In this document: positions 43,244 to 64,000 of the stretch, piece after piece
Numbering within the stretch: the first letter of the stretch is position 1
Layout: each line of letters opens with the position of its first letter
Source of the DNA: Rhizophagus irregularis
Lineage: Eukaryota > Glomeromycota > Glomeromycetes > Glomerales > Glomeraceae
DNA: 64,000 bases
NCBI RefSeq assembly: GCF_026210795.1
Contig: NC_089442.1
Location: 496,001-560,000, forward strand
Direction: 5' to 3'
The notes under the pieces: generated by a model
Databases searched by the model: none
Seen by the model: only the letters and a program-made list of their open reading frames with translations
Told to the model about the DNA's origin: nothing
Program-made: the position numbers and the translations under genes

Positions 43244-46200
43244 TTACTTTGGGAGATTCTTTGTAAATGGATTAAGCAATCGAGAAGTATAACAAGCTTT
43301 GGGATGAACAGTTGATTGGTTACTTCCAATGTTTAAAAATCTAAATTTTTTATTTCTTATTGCTTCTTCAATTTGTTTATTAATTTCCTCTTTAATTTCG
43401 ATCGCTTTTGGTCTATCATCTGGATTTGAACTCCAACACTTTTTCATCAACTCAATGTAACATTTTGGTGCTTCCTGCTCATTAATTTCGGGTCTAATTC
43501 CATTACATATATTTAATGCTAAAATACCATCATGAGCACAATTGGCAAAAGTTTGTCTTCTAGTTGCTACAAAATACATAATCATACCAAAACTATATAT
43601 ATCAGCCGCTTGAGTATAAGGTTTTCCTCTTAATATTTCAGGAGCTACATAAGGCATAACTCCATAAACTGTATTACTTATATTATCGACTTCCTTACAT
43701 AATCCCATATCCATAATACATATATCATCAGAAAATTGATCAGAAGGCAATATTAATATATTTCCTATATGTAAATCACGATGAACTGTTTGATTGTTGT
43801 GAATAATTTCAAGACAGTCAATAATTTTATACAATATATACAATTTTTCAATTCGATACCAAGGTTTTTTAATATATCTACTATTAACAAAACCTTCACT
43901 TGCAAGTTGGAGAACAATAATATAATCTTTTGTAATTGGATTTTGAGATATCCCATATATTTTAAGAATTTTATTATGATTGATAGAGTAATTTTTTACC
44001 TGTAAAATAAAATATATTAAAAAAAATTATAAATAGCTTCATTGATTTAAAGGAAAATTTTATACCTCATTTAATAACCCATTTGAAATATTTTGCGAAT
44101 CATGTAAGCACTTTAAAGCAACTTCTATACTATGATCCCTTTCCAACCCTTCGTAATTTGTATTATATTGTAATGGACCGTTCTCCCATAATGCTGAATA
44201 TACTGTAGAAAAACAACCTTTACCTATTTTTCTAATATTATTAAACTGGTCGTATGGTATCCATTCAACTATTGTATCATCATAATTTTTAATTTTTAAT
44301 TGCATTTCTTGAATTAATTCATCAATTTTTTTATTTTCACTGGTCCAATTTATAAAATTATTTTTTAAATATTTTATTTGACATGGTTTGCACCATTTAT
44401 GTTCAATATCTGTATAATGATCACTACATTTTTTACAATAACCTTTAATAACTATAAAATAATCTCTTGTAATTGGATTTTGAGATATTCCATATATTTT
44501 AGGTGATATATCTTTAGTTGGATGTAATATTCTACTATAATCAGTAGGTTGATTTAATGGTAAGTTATTCACTTTAATAAAATATGAATTAACCTATTAA
44601 AAATATAAAAGTTACTAGGAAAAACGTGCTTAAATTAAACTACATAGAAATTAAAAATTCATACTTCATTTAAAATTTCATTGGTAATATTTTGTGAACT
44701 ACATAAATATTTCAAAGTAACTTTTTTATTAGGTATTCTTTCCCACTTTATTCCATTATATTTTAATGGACCATTCATCCATATTGCTGAATATTGTAAA
44801 GTCGTATCACTCTTGTTTACTTTCTTAATATTACCAAACCGGTAATATGGCATCCATTCAACTATTATATCATCATGATTTTTAATTTTTAGTTGTTCTT
44901 CTTGAATTAATTCATCAATTATTTTATTTCCACTTGTCCAATTTCCAAATCTATTCTTTAGATCATTTATTTGACATGATTTACACTATTTATAGGTCAA
45001 ATCTGCATATATTTCACCACATATTTCACAATTTTTTCCAATTTCAAGAACCATAATATAATCCTTAGTAGCTGAGTTTTGTGATATTCCATATAATTCA
45101 ATAATATTATCATATTCAATGAAATATGTTTTTATCTATTATAATAAAAAAAAGCTATTTTAACAAAAAAGCACTTAAATTAAATTGTAAAAGATTAAAA
45201 TTTTATACCTTACTCAAAAATTCATTGGTAATATCATTATTTTGTGAATTACACAAATATTTTAAAGTAACTTCTTTATTATGTATCCTTTTCTGCTCCA
45301 TTTTATCACAATTATTATTCCATATTGCTGAATATATTGCAGCAGAATCATTTTTGCCTATTTTATTAATATCATTAAACTGGTTATATGGTATCCATTC
45401 AACTATATTATTATAATTGTTAATCTTTAATTGCATTTCTTGAATAAATTCATCAATTTGTTGGTTTCCACTAGTCCAATTTGCAAAATTTTGCTTTAAA
45501 TTACTTATCTGGCATATTTTACACCATTTATTACTAATATCATTATATATTTTAATACATTTATCACAAAGAATTCCATCCTGAAGAACTATAACATAAT
45601 TTTTTGTATCCGGATTTTGAGATATTCCATATATTTTAGTAATATCATATTCATTGCTTTTAACATATAATTTAGTTTCCTAAAATATATAAAAAAGTTA
45701 TTATATTAAAAAAATATTTAAATTGAATTAAAAAAATTAGCAATTATATACCTTATTTAAAAATTCATTGTTAATATTTTGTGAATTACATAAATATTTT
45801 AAAGCAACTTTTTTATTAGGCATCCTTATCCATTCCTTTTTATCAGATTTATCATATTCTAATGGTCCATTCATCCATATTGCTGAGTATAGCATAGCAA
45901 AATCACTTTCACCTATTTTTTTAAAATTATTAAATTGGTTATATGGTATCCATTCAACCATTATATTATCATAGTAGATTTCAAATTCTAGTTGCATTTC
46001 TTGAATAAATTTATCAATTATTTCATTTCCACTAGTCCAATTTTTGAAATCCATTATAAAATTACTTATTTGACATGATTCACACCATTTTATATATATT
46101 AATGTATATATTTCACCACATTTTTCACAGTGATTTCCATTCTCAAGAACTACAATGTAATCTTTTGTGTTTGGATTTTGTGATATTCCATATATCCTAG

Positions 46201-49042
46201 GGTTATTATAAGTACTATCTTCTTTATTTATTGCAATACTACTGTATGATCTAATTTGCTAAGTATAAAAGAATTTTATTATATATTAGAATTAAATTAC
46301 AAAAAAATTAAAGAGATTTGAAATTTCATACCCCATATAAATATTCTTCAGTAATATCTTGTGAGTTATATAAGTATTTTAAAGTAACTTTTAAATTAGG
46401 GGTTCTTTTCCATTTATAATATTCATAATCCAACAAGCCATTCATCCAATCTGCTGAATATAATGTAGCAAATTCACCTTGAACTATTTCTTTAATATTA
46501 TTAAAATGGTTATATGGTATCCATTCAACTATTATATCACTATGCTTTGTAATACTTAATTGCAGTTCTTGAATTAATTCATCAATTATTTCATTTCCAC
46601 TAGTCCAATTTACAAAATTTTGTTTTAAATTATTTATAAGACACGGATTGCACCACTTATACCTTGTTATTTCATACATTTTACTACAGTTTTCACAATA
46701 ACAATCTTGAAGCACCATAATATAATCTTTTGAATCCGGATTTTGAGATATTCCATATACTTTAATAATATTATTGTTATCATTTTCATAAATTCCGATA
46801 TTATGTTCTGTATATTGGTTAAAGGAGGATTTTTTCATACTATTGCTGACATAATTCCTTATATGTTTTTCATCAATGTAAGTTTTAATCTATAAAATAT
46901 AAGATAAATCATTAGTAAAAGCTTTTAAACTGAATCACAAAGAAATCAAAACTTCATACTTTATTTAAAAATTCATCAGTAGTTATTTGCGAATTATTTA
47001 GACAAATTAAAGTAACTTTTTCATTAGGTTTCCTCTCCCATTCCATCTTATCATAATTATAATATAACGGACCATTTATAAATATTGCTGAATATATTAT
47101 AACAGAATCATTTTTATATAATACCTTGATATTATTAAACTGATTATATGATATCCATTCAATTATTGTATCATTTAACTTATCAATTTCTAATTGCATC
47201 CGTTGTATAAATTTGTCAATTTTTTCATTTTCACTAGTCCAGTTTGCAAAATTTTGCTTTAAATCATTTATTAGACATTGCTTGCACCATTTATACTTTA
47301 TGTTACTATACATGTTATCACAGATTTTACAATAACCATTTTGAAGTACTATAATATAATCTTTTGTGGTTTGGTTTTGAGATATTCCATATATTTTTAC
47401 AATATTATCATATTTGACAAATTGAACAGAATATGATTCAATCTATCATAATATAAAAAGTTATTTTAATAAAAAGCTCTTAAATTAAATTAAAAAAGAT
47501 TAAAAATTTTATACCTCATTTAGTAATTCATTGATAATATCATTATTTTGTGAATTACTCAAAAACTTTAAAGCAACTTCTTTATTAGGTATTCTTTCTT
47601 GTTCCATTTTATCACAATTATATTCTAATAAACCATTTGTCCATATTGCTGAATATAATGGGACAGAATCATTGCATATTTTTTTAATATCATTAAACTG
47701 ATTGAAAGGTATCCATTCAATTATCACATCATTATGTTTATTAATTTTTAATTGCATTTCTTGGATTAGTTCATCAATCTTTTCATTTCCACTAGTCCAA
47801 TTTGCAAAATTTTGTTTTAAATTATTTATTTGACATTGATTACACCATTTATACTTTATATCTGTATAAATTTTGCCACAGTATTCACAATAACAATCTT
47901 GAAGTATTAAAATATAATTCTTTGTATCTGGGTTTTGAGATATTCCATATAATTTTATAGTATAATCTTCAATAAAACATTGTTTATTCTTGATAAAATA
48001 TATAAAAAGAAAGTTATTACAATATAATAAAAAAAAAGTACTTGAATAGTATAACAATTAAAAATAATTTCATACCTTTTTATAAGTTAAAAATTCATTG
48101 TTGGTTATCTTTAAAGAATTATCAAAATTTATTAAATTAATTTTTTCATTAGAATTCCTTTTCCATTCTATTTTATCATAATCGTAATATAATGGTCCAT
48201 TCATCCAAATTGCTGAATATAATGTCATGCCTATTGTTTTGATAGAATTAAACTGGTTATATGGTATCCAATCAAATATTGTATCATCTAGTTTATCAAT
48301 CTTTAATTGTATTTTTTGAATGAGCTTGTCAACTTTTTCGTCTCCACTAGTCCAACTTGAAAAATTTTGTTTTAAATTATTTATTTGACATGGGTTACAC
48401 CATTTATACCTTTTATCTGTATATATTTTACCACAATTTACGCAATAGCAATCTTGAAGTACGATAATATAATCTTCTGTATCCATATTTTTGGATATTC
48501 CGTACATTGTAATAATATTACTATGATCATCATTTTCAATAGTATATGATTTAGCCTGTTATAATATAAAATAGTTTTCTTTAATAAAAACACAGAGATT
48601 AAATTATATTAAAATACAAATGACCCAAAAACTAATTTCATACCTCATTTAAAAATTCATTGATAATATTATTTTGTGAATTAACTAAATATTTTAAAGC
48701 AACTTTTTTATTAGGTATCCTTTTCCGTTCTATTTTATCATAATTATATTTTAATGGACCATCTGTCCATATTGCTGAATATATTATATTATAATCATCA
48801 TCGTCAATTTCTTTAATATCATTAAACTGATTATATGGTATCCATTCAACTATTATATCATCAAAATTTTTAATTTTTAGTTGAATTTCTTGAATTAATT
48901 CATCAATTTTTTCGTTACCGCTGGTCCAGTTTGTAAAATTTTGTTTTAAATCATTTATTTGACATGGTTCACACCATTTATAATTAATTTCTGTGTAAAT
49001 TTCACCACATTTTTTACACGTAATATCATTTTGAGATGACAT
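43244..49042 (-). CDS. Kinase with nine tandem ribbon + N-lobe modules (exon array)
   Basis: Ten exons: 48644-49042, 48076-48555, 47515-47988, 46960-47442, 46332-46889, 45752-46258, 45209-45679, 44665-45135, 44066-44593 and 43244-43999. Each of the first nine is a multiple of three and ends before GTATRWAA, so all introns (66-88 bp) are phase 0. Each encodes a CxxC-x11-CxxC ribbon with a YKWC-like core, the NWTSGN linker, an EWIPYNQFN kinase entry and the N-lobe up to beta-3/alpha-C (VALKYLxNSQ). Modules 2-9 also open with the beta-4/beta-5 strand segment (YGISQNP, KDYIIVLQ). Only module 9 keeps a GKG-type glycine loop and joins the single C-lobe (VHRDLHIGN, MDMGLC, CWSSNPDDRP). Full reading gives about 1708 aa, but module 8 has TAG at 44986-44988 in place of TGG, which truncates it to about 1173 aa unless exon 8 is skipped, which would keep frame. 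The tail is shortened compared with the paralogue at 62880. Confidence 0.7.
44986..44988 (-). other. Nonsense codon in module 8 (TGG to TAG)
   Basis: All other modules read TGG TG(T/C) in the YKWC/HKWC core of the ribbon; module 8 reads TAG TGT. On the + strand this is CCA to CTA. It would block translation before the catalytic C-lobe unless the exon is skipped. Confidence 0.85.
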
Positions 49043-49855: not shown

Positions 49856-50518
49856 TAGGGATGGCAACGGTCACGGTCATTAACCGATTATGACCGGTCA
49901 TGACCGTGACCGATATCGGTCGGTCAAGACTTCTGACCGACCGTTTGACCGACAGTTTGACCGACCGGTTTGACCGACCGTTTGACCGATCATTATCACC
50001 GCAACATTTTTATTTAAAAAACGTTGCGAAAACGTTTTTTTATTAATAATTTAACGTTTTTCGCAAACGGGTTTTAATTAATTTAACAAAAAACGTTGCG
50101 AAAACGTTTTTTATTAATAATTTAACGTTTTTCGCAAACGTTTTTAATTAATTTAACAAAAAAATGTTGCGAAAACGTTTTTTATTAATAATTTAACATT
50201 TTTCGCAAACGTTTTTAATTAATTTAACAAAAAAACGTTGCGAAAACGTTTTTATTAATAATTTAATTAAAAAAAAAACGTTTTCGCAACGTTTTTTAAT
50301 TATTTTAATAAAAAAAAAAAACGGTTTCGCACGTTTTTTTAATTGCCTTAATAAAAACGCTGCGAAAATGTGTTTTATAATGATCGGTCAAACCGGTCGG
50401 TCAAACGGTCGGTCAAACGGTCAGCCATAGCGGTCGGTCAGAACGGTCGGTCGGTCAAAGGTTCTTGACCGGTTATGACCGACCGATGACCGACCATGAC
50501 CGACCGTTGCCATCCCTA
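49856..50518. mobile_element. Non-autonomous hAT-type element, 663 bp, with internal repeats
   Basis: Perfect 8-bp target duplication CTTACTAC (49848-49855 and 50519-50526). Inverted ends TAGGGATGGCAACGG and CCGTTGCCATCCCTA. The subterminal zones are arrays of GACCGACCG/GGTCGGTC. The middle holds about four tandem copies of a 65-70 bp unit (see next entry). No transposase. The two ends together form a very long imperfect inverted structure. Confidence 0.9.
50005..50345. repeat. Tandem AACGTTGCGAAAACGTT units inside the hAT element
   Basis: Units of about 65-70 bp built from AACGTTGCGAAAACG, an AT-rich spacer TTATTAATAATTTAA, CGTTTTTCGCAAACG and TTTAATTAATTTAAC. The first and last copies lie in opposite orientation, so the block is itself palindromic. 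Confidence 0.75.
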
Positions 50519-50526
50519 CTTACTAC

Positions 50527-51264
50527 TTATGCCTTTTCTTTCTCTAGTTCAGCAGTTACCTCTTCACATCGTGGAGCAACCAATATAAGTTGAATAATTA
50601 AATTTAAACTTGAAAACATCTATTCCAATAAATACCAGAAATTTCAATAATAATTTTTCTTCTAATTCTAAGATATTATTATTTTTAATTTCTTAAGATA
50701 TTTTATCCATCTCGGGAAGCCTTGATATCTGATGTTAATGAGATCAACGCTGACCGTGAAATAACTGGTTTATGCCACAGAGACCAATCACTGGTCAAAG
50801 TGGGGTGATGTGCAATATACAGTATTTACATCAGACAAATTTTACGCACACGTCACATTTCATATTGATTTACTAGTAATTTCAATTGAATCCGATTAAA
50901 ATGTATGTCACAGAAATTAGTTGTAAACTTGTCCAATTCCCATGAAGTGTATATGTCTTTTGAAATTTGCAAGTTTCCATTATATAAATGTATTTTAAAT
51001 TGCAATAAAACATATTTATACATCATTTAAATTTACAACATATTAAAATGAAATTGTTTGCATTATAAAGAAATGTTAAAGAAATTCTGCTCATATTTGC
51101 AAATATATAGCTAAAATATTAACAATAAATACAATAAATTATTATAAATTCTATATAAATTTTATGTATATTATAAAGAAACTTCGCTAACACTTTAAAT
51201 GCATTGTAAAATTAATAAAACAAAATGTTGTATAATAAGATACTTGACAAAAATCCTATTAAAG
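50527..51264. other. Intergenic, no gene seen
   Basis: AT-rich DNA between two transposable elements; nothing supportable. Confidence 0.5.
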
Positions 51265-62879: not shown

Positions 62880-64000
62880 TTACTCTGTAAAATCAACAAC
62901 TTCTACTGAATTATTGCTAATATTATCATACCTTGGGAGATCATTTGTAAATGGATTAAGTAACCGAGAAGTATAACAAGCCTTTGGATGAGTAGTTAAT
63001 TGGATATTATATGGAAATTTTATATTGTTTTTTCTTGCTTCTTCAAATTGTTTATTAATTTCCTCTTTAATTTTAGTAGCATTTGGTCTATTATTTGGAT
63101 TTGGATCCCAACACTTCTTTATCAACTCAATGTAACTTTCGGGTATTTCTTGCTCATTAATTTCAGGTCTAATTCCATTGCATATCTTCAATGCTAAAAT
63201 ATTATCATGAGCACAATTGTCAAAAGGCTGTCTTCTAGTTGCTATAAAATACATAATCATACCAAAACTATATATATCTGCTGCTTGAGTATAAGGATTT
63301 CCTTTTAATACTTCAGGAGCTACATAAGGCATAACTCCATAAATTTTTGTCTCATCTGTATTTTTTATATCACCAACTTCTCTACATAATCCCATATCTG
63401 AAATACATATTTTGTCTAATACATCAGGAATATAATCATCATTAATACATATAACATTATTAGGTAATATTAATATATTTCCTGTGTGCAAATCATGATG
63501 GACCATTTGTTTGTCATGAATAATTTTAAGACAGTCAATAATTTGATCTAATATATATAATTTCTTAAACCAATACCAAGAATTTTTAATATATTCATGA
63601 TTAACAAAATTTCCAGTTGCAAATTGAAGAACTATGATATAATCTTTTGTATATGGATCTTGAGATATTCCATATATTTGAAGAATTCCATTATCACAAA
63701 TAGAATAATTTTTAACCTAATAAATTTTTAAAAAAAATTGTTATATTAAAAGATATTGATTAGCTTCATTAATTTAAAGGAAATTATACCTCATTTAATA
63801 ATCCATTTGAAATATCTTGTGAATTGTTTAAACATTTTAAAGCAACTTCTATACTATGTTCTCTTTCCAACTTTTCATAATTTGTATTACATCGTAATAG
63901 GCCATTCTTCCATAATGCCGAATATACTGTAGAAAACCCACCTTTACCTATTTTTTTGATATTACTAAACTGGTAGTATGGTATCCATTCAACTATTATA
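62880..64000 (-). CDS. Ribbon-type TKL kinase, 3' part (continues beyond window)
   Basis: Last exon 62880-63716 and the preceding exon from 63790 to the window edge; the join at GAG-GTATAA is phase 0. The visible N-lobe has a good glycine loop (IGKGGFSTVYSALW) and VALKCL Lys. The last exon opens with YGISQDP, KDYIIVLQ, then catalytic loop HHDLHTGN (Arg of HRD replaced by His, Asp kept), SDMGLC in place of DFG and CWDPNPNNRP. The tail runs to FTNDLPRYD...VDFTE and is complete, unlike the nine-module paralogue. The exon upstream starts outside the window, so whether this gene also has an N-lobe array is unknown. Likely an active kinase. Confidence 0.8.

What the first reader, a model, noticed from the sequence alone, without database searches (positions are those of the whole stretch)
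43244..49042. Nine tandem zinc-ribbon + kinase N-lobe exons feeding one kinase C-lobe
Nine consecutive exons on the minus strand each encode a CxxC-x11-CxxC ribbon, the NWTSGN linker, EWIPYNQFN and a kinase N-lobe up to the Lys strand, at spacing of about 490-630 bp. Only the ninth keeps a GKG glycine loop; modules 2 and 4 have lost the beta-3 Lys (INLINF, VTLICL). Modules 2-9 begin with beta-4/beta-5 residues, so the duplicated unit runs across the exon and not across the domain. The predicted product is a chain of non-ATP-binding N-lobe decoys in front of one kinase. I do not know of a described kinase with this layout.
Basis: partly seen in the sequence, partly recalled or inferred. Interest (0 to 1): 0.85.

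Follow-up and report, generated by a model that had tools for sequence, protein, structure and literature searches.

The report
Half-kinase repeat arrays in a fungus
This gene strings together nine copies of a small zinc-binding piece fused to the front half of a protein kinase, followed by a single back half; similar arrays recur at many places in this mycorrhizal fungus, and in those examined only the last front half keeps the ATP-binding loop, although this particular copy carries a premature stop.

Summary
The nine-module array is real: ten exons, nine short phase-0 introns, each internal exon running from the end of one kinase N-lobe (beta4-beta5-hinge) through a zinc ribbon to beta1-beta3 of the next. 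The layout is not a one-off: four module searches of the same genome list at least 258 such modules in at least 102 clusters on 24 of 32 contigs. All 20 loci fetched on that basis begin RN|(BRN)n; 19 reach a C-lobe, one is truncated. 15 of the 21 arrays, the window's included in the 21, are open in every module. The GxG ATP loop is in 0 of 151 internal and 32 of 36 terminal N-lobes, while ribbon cysteines and the beta3 Lys (125 of 140) persist. Two arrays have lost an intron, fusing modules in frame. A single origin of internal modules is rejected. Best explanation: inert N-lobe/ribbon repeats kept as a binding scaffold for one kinase. Function is inferred, not shown.

The parts
48644..49042 (-). 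exon 1: ATG, zinc ribbon 1, linker, N-lobe 1 beta1-beta3 (RN)
   Evidence: GxG absent
48076..48555 (-). exon 2: beta4-hinge of N-lobe 1, ribbon 2, beta1-beta3 of N-lobe 2 (BRN); Lys lost (INLINF)
47515..47988 (-). exon 3 (BRN)
46960..47442 (-). exon 4 (BRN); Lys lost (VTLICL)
46332..46889 (-). exon 5 (BRN), with an insert before beta4
45752..46258 (-). exon 6 (BRN)
45209..45679 (-). exon 7 (BRN)
44665..45135 (-). exon 8 (BRN) with in-frame stop
44986..44988 (-). premature TAG in ribbon 8 where the other eight modules have Trp
   Evidence: also listed as '1 TAG'
44066..44593 (-). exon 9 (BRN): last module, keeps IGKGCFSTVY and VALK
43244..43999 (-). exon 10: beta4-hinge of N-lobe 9 and the only kinase C-lobe (HRDLHIGN, DMG, APE)
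62931..63993 (-). 3' end of a second array (L001, C14:557000-566500), most of which lies just outside the window

Best explanation
It is one member (this copy probably damaged) of a large gene family in which a single TKL-like kinase carries extra copies, 3 to 12 in the 21 arrays examined, of a ribbon-plus-N-lobe unit in front of its own. SHOWN: the layout, its recurrence, coding constraint, loss of the ATP loop in the internal N-lobes examined and its retention in most terminal ones, retention of the ribbon Cys and mostly of the Lys/Glu pair, positional identity of modules between arrays, and more than one origin. INFERRED: each splice junction completes a whole N-lobe (beta1-3 from exon n, alphaC-beta4-beta5 around the junction and into exon n+1), so the protein is a string of zinc ribbons and inert N-lobes ending in one kinase. 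The inert units are kept for their surface, not for catalysis: they bind partners (other kinases, substrates or foreign proteins) or the terminal kinase itself, and so recruit, hold off or switch on the single kinase. Array length changes by unequal crossing-over.
For: Gene model with phase-0 introns. One module as query gives 150 matches of 150 scored, from 5121 candidates. Four module searches together: at least 258 modules, 102 clusters, 24 of 32 contigs (counted). All 20 loci fetched begin RN|(BRN)n and 19 reach a C-lobe; L003 is cut off. 15 of 21 arrays open in every module. GxG: 0 of 151 internal, 32 of 36 terminal, the other 4 reading DKGGF (after moving L006 module 12 to internal). Second Gly 9 of 133 internal, 35 of 35 terminal; beta3 Lys 125 of 140 and 35 of 35; the four Cys invariant wherever aligned; alphaC Glu 92 of 105 and 34 of 35. 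Each W exon is closest to the same-numbered L004 exon, exon 8 only by 0.63 to 0.62; dN/dS 0.42 overall. Exon identity 0.86, intron 0.76. Intron loss joins modules in frame in L021 and L022. All internal modules as one clade rejected, p 1.6e-53. Catalytic loop kept in the window's C-lobe.
Against: No transcript, protein or partner was examined. The window copy has a TAG; L001 and L008 have frameshifts, L005 a TAG and a gap, L003 is truncated, L006 is irregular. dN/dS is only moderately below 1: up to 0.95 in L016/L017, 0.89 in L010/L011, and 1.19 for exon 1 of W/L001. Terminal kinases are not all sound: L006 reads HHN for HRD and L019 SME for DMG. Module 8 of W groups with the module-6 units on the tree, not with module 8 of L004. 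Within the window-type arrays alone a single split of terminal from internal modules is not rejected (p 0.18). Gene conversion inside arrays could mimic several origins. Fold models are weak in alphaC-beta5.
Confidence: 0.5

Rival explanations
1. Passenger arrays: internal modules arise constantly by unequal crossing-over in a huge kinase family and are tolerated, not used. The ATP loop decays because a half-kinase cannot use it; folding constraint alone keeps the rest.
For: Unequal crossing-over is visible: L002 starts at a module-3 type unit; L003 starts with a 1/3 hybrid, runs 4-8, passes into a module-1-type N-lobe, then 2, then a broken 3. 6 of 21 arrays have a stop, frameshift, truncation or irregularity. 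dN/dS 0.3-0.95 in many exons.
Against: Ribbon Cys invariant where aligned and Lys/Glu mostly kept; module identity and order largely conserved between C14 and C20 arrays; more than one origin with the same outcome.
Confidence: 0.27
2. The copy in the window is a pseudogene: the TGG to TAG change in exon 8 has ended its function, whatever the family does.
For: TAG at 44988-44986; exon 8 is the most diverged of the ten against L004 (identity 0.63, dN/dS 0.62).
Against: All splice sites, the start codon and the other nine exons are intact; exon 8 is a phase 0-0 exon whose skipping keeps the frame; a single wrong base in the assembly is possible.
Confidence: 0.45
3. Isoform generator: because every internal exon is 0-0 and every junction is equivalent, alternative splicing chooses how many and which modules stand in front of the kinase.
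For: All ten exon lengths are multiples of three and all nine introns phase 0 in the window gene; junctions in other arrays fit the same scheme (although those scripts looked only for phase-0 sites).
Against: No transcript data; equal phase follows from exon duplication alone.
Confidence: 0.12
4. Separate short genes or an assembly artefact.
For: None found here; starts and poly(A) signals of single modules were not searched for.
Against: Shared splice frame in the window gene; in-frame fusion by intron loss; the same layout at many places; 75% protein identity between the W and L004 arrays on different contigs.
Confidence: 0.03

Closest known systems
R. irregularis TKL-like kinases (PF07714/PF00069) with one ribbon and one kinase domain
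   Same: Same ribbon, linker, N-lobe and C-lobe; in the window gene at 20450-18950 the intron lies at the same place, phase 0, just before beta4
   Different: One N-lobe per kinase; no hinge-to-ribbon exon
Plant tandem kinase proteins (e.g. Lr9, PMC10260399, start of abstract seen in the listing)
   Same: Several kinase-derived units in one chain; proposed decoy/sensor plus executor roles (recalled)
   Different: Those repeat whole kinase or pseudokinase domains (recalled); here only the N-lobe with a zinc ribbon is repeated and there is one C-lobe
Pseudokinases (e.g. MLKL, HER3; recalled)
   Same: Kinase fold freed from catalysis and kept for binding
   Different: Pseudokinases have both lobes; the internal units have no C-lobe
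Glomeromycotina MLKL-like proteins with Sel1 repeats (PMC8778642, passages)
   Same: Expanded kinase-like family in the same fungal group
   Different: Sel1 repeats; no ribbon/N-lobe arrays in the passages seen

Membership tests
Protein kinase superfamily (terminal unit) | C-lobe with HRD, DFG-like and APE motifs; match to a curated kinase model | tested here: met
   Window exon 10: Pkinase E 1.6e-29, PK_Tyr_Ser-Thr 2e-25; HRDLHIGN, DMG, APE. In relatives L006 (HHN) and L019 (SME) depart
Protein kinase superfamily (terminal unit) | Glycine-rich loop and beta3 Lys in the attached N-lobe | tested here: met
   IGKGCFSTVY and VALK in module 9; GxG in 32 of 36 terminal units
Tandem kinase proteins | Two or more complete kinase or pseudokinase domains in one chain | tested here: not met
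   One C-lobe in the window gene; in the loci fetched no C-lobe hit between internal modules; short C-lobe fragments lie downstream of the arrays in L015 and L020
Pseudokinases (internal units) | Two-lobed kinase fold lacking catalytic residues | tested here: not met
   Internal units run N-lobe, hinge, then the next ribbon, without a C-lobe
Kinase N-lobe fold (internal units) | beta1-beta3, alphaC, beta4-beta5 sheet like a solved kinase N-lobe | tested here: inconclusive
   Model of one unit: beta1-beta3 pLDDT 77-87 but alphaC-beta5 about 50, pTM 0.54; best solved matches mostly kinases, best E 0.04, Z about 5. The assignment rests mainly on sequence alignment with terminal modules
NOB1-type zinc ribbon (PF08772) | Score above the family cut-off | tested here: not met
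   14.0 and 14.5 bits against a cut-off of 24.9
Zinc ribbon in general | Four Cys in two CxxC pairs binding zinc | tested here: inconclusive
   The four Cys are invariant wherever aligned (rows whose match starts late are gapped there, so losses at the edge can be hidden); zinc binding not testable here

The most novel reading that the evidence does not exclude
A mycorrhizal fungus has evolved, more than once, a kind of receptor not described before: poly-N-lobe kinases, in which strings of catalytically dead half-kinases with zinc ribbons act as decoys or bait for foreign or partner kinases and control one live kinase, their number and order tuned by unequal crossing-over, as a fungal counterpart to the tandem-kinase and NLR sensors of plants.
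Probability: 0.25. Interest if true: 0.93.

Novelty: new variant of a known kind. Interest (0 to 1): 0.77.

Why it matters
R. irregularis is reported to have 2,533 kinase genes (PMC10234402, passages), and what most of them do is not known to me. At least a hundred clusters listed in this genome contain hinge-to-ribbon modules, an architecture that ordinary domain annotation does not show: none of the four module exons given to Pfam passed a curated cut-off. If the arrays are made as proteins, half a kinase fold has been turned into a repeat unit, and dead N-lobes with a terminal kinase give a direct, testable link between the kinase expansion and recognition or self/non-self signalling in a fungus that lives inside plants.

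Tried and rejected
Separate genes and misassembly were considered and rejected (see rivals). TAG excess: several matches show '1 TAG'; for L012 the TAG is the in-frame last bases of the upstream intron, and I take the other edge cases to be the same (inference, not each checked), so I dropped the idea of a special code. TAGs inside exons stand at Trp codons in W module 8, L005 module 4 and one L037 module (the L037 module also has a TGA); A-to-I editing as in the PUK1 pseudokinase gene of Fusarium (PMC4817773, start of abstract in the listing) is a lead only: three cases, and L037 is decayed. The stop flagged for L014 module 4 lies beyond a donor site that my script picked wrongly; the exon itself is open. 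One-clade test of terminal modules in window-type arrays: not rejected (p 0.18; first run unfinished). B-only rows misaligned in A1, so A3 and A4 were used; A4 aligned the single-exon rows to one half of the query, and its model is weak (pTM 0.40; Z below 5). Loci L025-L036 were picked as presumed single genes; 11 of 12 were arrays, so they are not a control. Fairer sample: of 12 loci taken from near the top of the PF07714 list, 3 are arrays and 9 single, L045 with a doubtful ribbon/N-lobe. Exon 8 skipping and expression could not be tested. Start codons of the other arrays were not checked. No Rfam match in the window. Not in print, as far as searches show; one cited paper on pseudokinases (Kwon 2019) is not held and was not read.
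Full report
WHAT IS THERE. On the minus strand, 49042-43244, a gene model of ten exons and nine introns can be read directly: every exon length is a multiple of three, every intron is GT..AG, 66-88 nt and phase 0 (sites found by eye and checked in the script). Exon 1 is ribbon plus N-lobe beta1-beta3 (RN). Exons 2-9 are BRN: the end of the previous N-lobe (beta4, beta5, hinge), then ribbon, linker and beta1-beta3 of the next. Exon 10 is B plus the only C-lobe. Nine direct-repeat copies, spaced 538-634, are found without any model. The 1709-codon frame is otherwise open to its final stop.

WHERE IT COMES FROM. The window is C14:496001-560000 of a 32-contig, 146.7 Mb genome. Contig number and size, and a contig of 5,085,394 bases equal to the published scaffold N50, fit the R. 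irregularis DAOM197198 assembly of PMC10234402 (passages); this identification is inference.

IT RECURS. One module used as query gives 150 matches of 150 scored (5121 candidates). I fetched 20 such loci. All begin RN|(BRN)n; 19 reach a C-lobe, and L003 breaks off after a beta4-hinge. With the window gene, the arrays have 4 to 12 ribbon modules, L006 having a thirteenth N-lobe without a ribbon hit. Of these 21, W and L005 have a TAG, L001 and L008 frameshifts, L003 is truncated, L006 is irregular near its end and L005 has a gap of over 1 kb; the other 15 are open in every module. Their start codons were not checked. L002 and L003 lie 8 kb apart and share near-identical modules, so they are not independent. 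In 138 junctions both splice sites were found in phase 0, length 51-191, median 72, but that script looked only for phase-0 sites.

ONE CHAIN, NOT SEPARATE GENES. In L021 and L022 one intron is missing and two modules are fused in frame in a single open frame of 330 and 334 codons. A loss that leaves the exons joined at the predicted junction is what reverse-copied spliced RNA would give (inference), and it shows directly that neighbouring modules belong to one reading frame. The single-module kinase at 20450-18950 in the window has its intron at the same place and phase, and most of the 147 PF07714 matches listed for this genome (a capped list) begin at model positions 48-73, that is just after this intron. 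So the BRN exon looks like a fusion of the start of an ancestral second exon (B) with an ancestral first exon (RN) (inference).

ATP LOOP LOST EXCEPT AT THE END. Counting N-lobes in W and L001-L036, one search gave GxG in 0 of 152 internal and 32 of 37 terminal hits, with 3 rows uncalled and without GxG. After merging two double hits and moving L006 module 12 to internal, it is 0 of 151 and 32 of 36; the four exceptions (L022, L027, L028, L036) read DKGGF. The terminal set includes the single-module gene L034. At the level of whole exons in the 21 arrays, one search gave 0 of 120 internal and 19 of 21 last, the two exceptions being the frameshifted L001 and the truncated L003. On an alignment of 143 internal and 35 terminal units, the second Gly is kept in 9 of 133 and 35 of 35, the beta3 Lys in 125 of 140 and 35 of 35, and the four ribbon Cys wherever aligned (127 of 127 to 132 of 132 internal; rows whose match starts late are gapped there). 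The last residue of the RN unit, taken as the alphaC Glu, is E in 92 of 105 internal and 34 of 35 terminal (38 internal rows gapped). The window's C-lobe has HRDLHIGN, DMG and APE. Among relatives the first motif varies (HRD, HHD, HCD), L006 reads HHN and L019 SME in place of DMG, so not every terminal kinase need be active.

MODULES HAVE IDENTITY. Each of the ten exons of W is closest to the same-numbered exon of L004, on another contig, at 63-86% protein identity, exon 8 only by 0.63 to 0.62; on the tree the RN part of W module 8 groups with module 6 instead. dN/dS by a simple Nei-Gojobori count is 0.42 overall, 0.29-0.62 by exon, 0.34 for the C-lobe exon. Other pairs are higher in places: up to 0.95 in L016/L017, 0.89 in L010/L011, and 1.19 for exon 1 in W/L001. 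Exons are 86% and introns 76% identical, with fewer gaps in exons (one L004 intron end was not called, which inflates its gaps). L002 starts at a module-3 type unit; L003 starts with a 1/3 hybrid, runs 4 to 8, passes into a module-1-type N-lobe, then 2, then a broken 3: unequal crossing-over between and within modules.

MORE THAN ONE ORIGIN. Twelve loci taken from near the top of the PF07714 list, not chosen by module similarity, gave 9 single kinases (L045 doubtful) and 3 arrays, L039, L040 and L042, of divergent subfamilies. The internal units seen there again lack the loop (e.g. TRSEIFNAVW, ASSNFGNMYG) and the last units keep it or nearly so (NQGGF, AKGGF). On a tree of 80 units with the loop and Lys columns left out, window-type arrays, L039/L040 and L042 fall in three places, L042 among single kinases and outside the window-type clade; well supported branches force at least 4 changes of the label 'internal' and none of 200 bootstrap trees has one group. 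Holding all 56 internal units together is rejected (p 1.6e-53). Within window-type arrays alone the corresponding test on terminal units does not reject one split (p 0.18; 15 changes on a poorly resolved tree). Gene conversion could inflate the number of origins.

STRUCTURE. Contiguous units from L021 were folded. Ribbon, two helices and beta1-beta3 are modelled, beta1-beta3 at pLDDT 77-87, alphaC to beta5 near 50 (pTM 0.54). The two-module model shows the order beta1-3, alphaC, beta4, beta5 across the lost junction, weakly in alphaC-beta5 and with pTM 0.40. Solved matches are mostly kinases, but weak (best E 0.04, Z about 5 or less). Pfam passes its cut-off only for exon 10 among the five exons tested.

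HOW IT MOST LIKELY WORKS. The pattern (loop lost, ribbon Cys and Lys/Glu kept, one kinase at the end, more than one origin) fits repeats kept for their surface. The most likely role is recruitment or control of the terminal kinase by partners that bind N-lobes or ribbons. Decoy function is one form of this and is not shown. The main rival is tolerated by-products of unequal crossing-over under folding constraint only. The window copy itself may be dead.

LITERATURE. The kinase expansion of R. irregularis is known (PMC4219462 and PMC6123716, passages; PMC10234402, passages). I found no description of repeated N-lobes in searches (listings); subscription papers are mostly not held.

Noticed in passing
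window 49862-50530: A roughly 650-base element with inverted ends (gggatggcaac...gttgccatccc) full of TGACCGACCG repeats and a 71-base tandem repeat, about 0.8 kb upstream of the array's ATG; looks like a MITE-type insertion.
   Followed up: no
window 62931-63993 and L001: A second array of nine modules ends about 14 kb from the first one's start; where readable its modules are in register with the window's, and modules 2 and 9 are frameshifted.
   Followed up: partly
L005 module 4, L037, window 44988-44986: TAG stops inside exons stand at a Trp (TGG) codon in three cases; RNA editing would be one possible reading, ordinary nonsense mutation the simpler one.
   Followed up: partly
G000 C14:254000-1200000: 19 of the 102 listed clusters lie in this 1 Mb stretch: an apparent hot spot of arrays.
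   Followed up: no
L023 and L024: Very long acidic (Asp/Asn) runs inside the beta4 part of a module in two arrays, at the exon start.
   Followed up: no
window 11716-10513, 20261-19016, 33893-32713: Three further kinase genes in the window, with no internal module found in front of them by the same models.
   Followed up: partly
L015:1335-1270 and L020:1492-1433: Short C-lobe fragments downstream of two arrays, possibly remains of a further copy.
   Followed up: no
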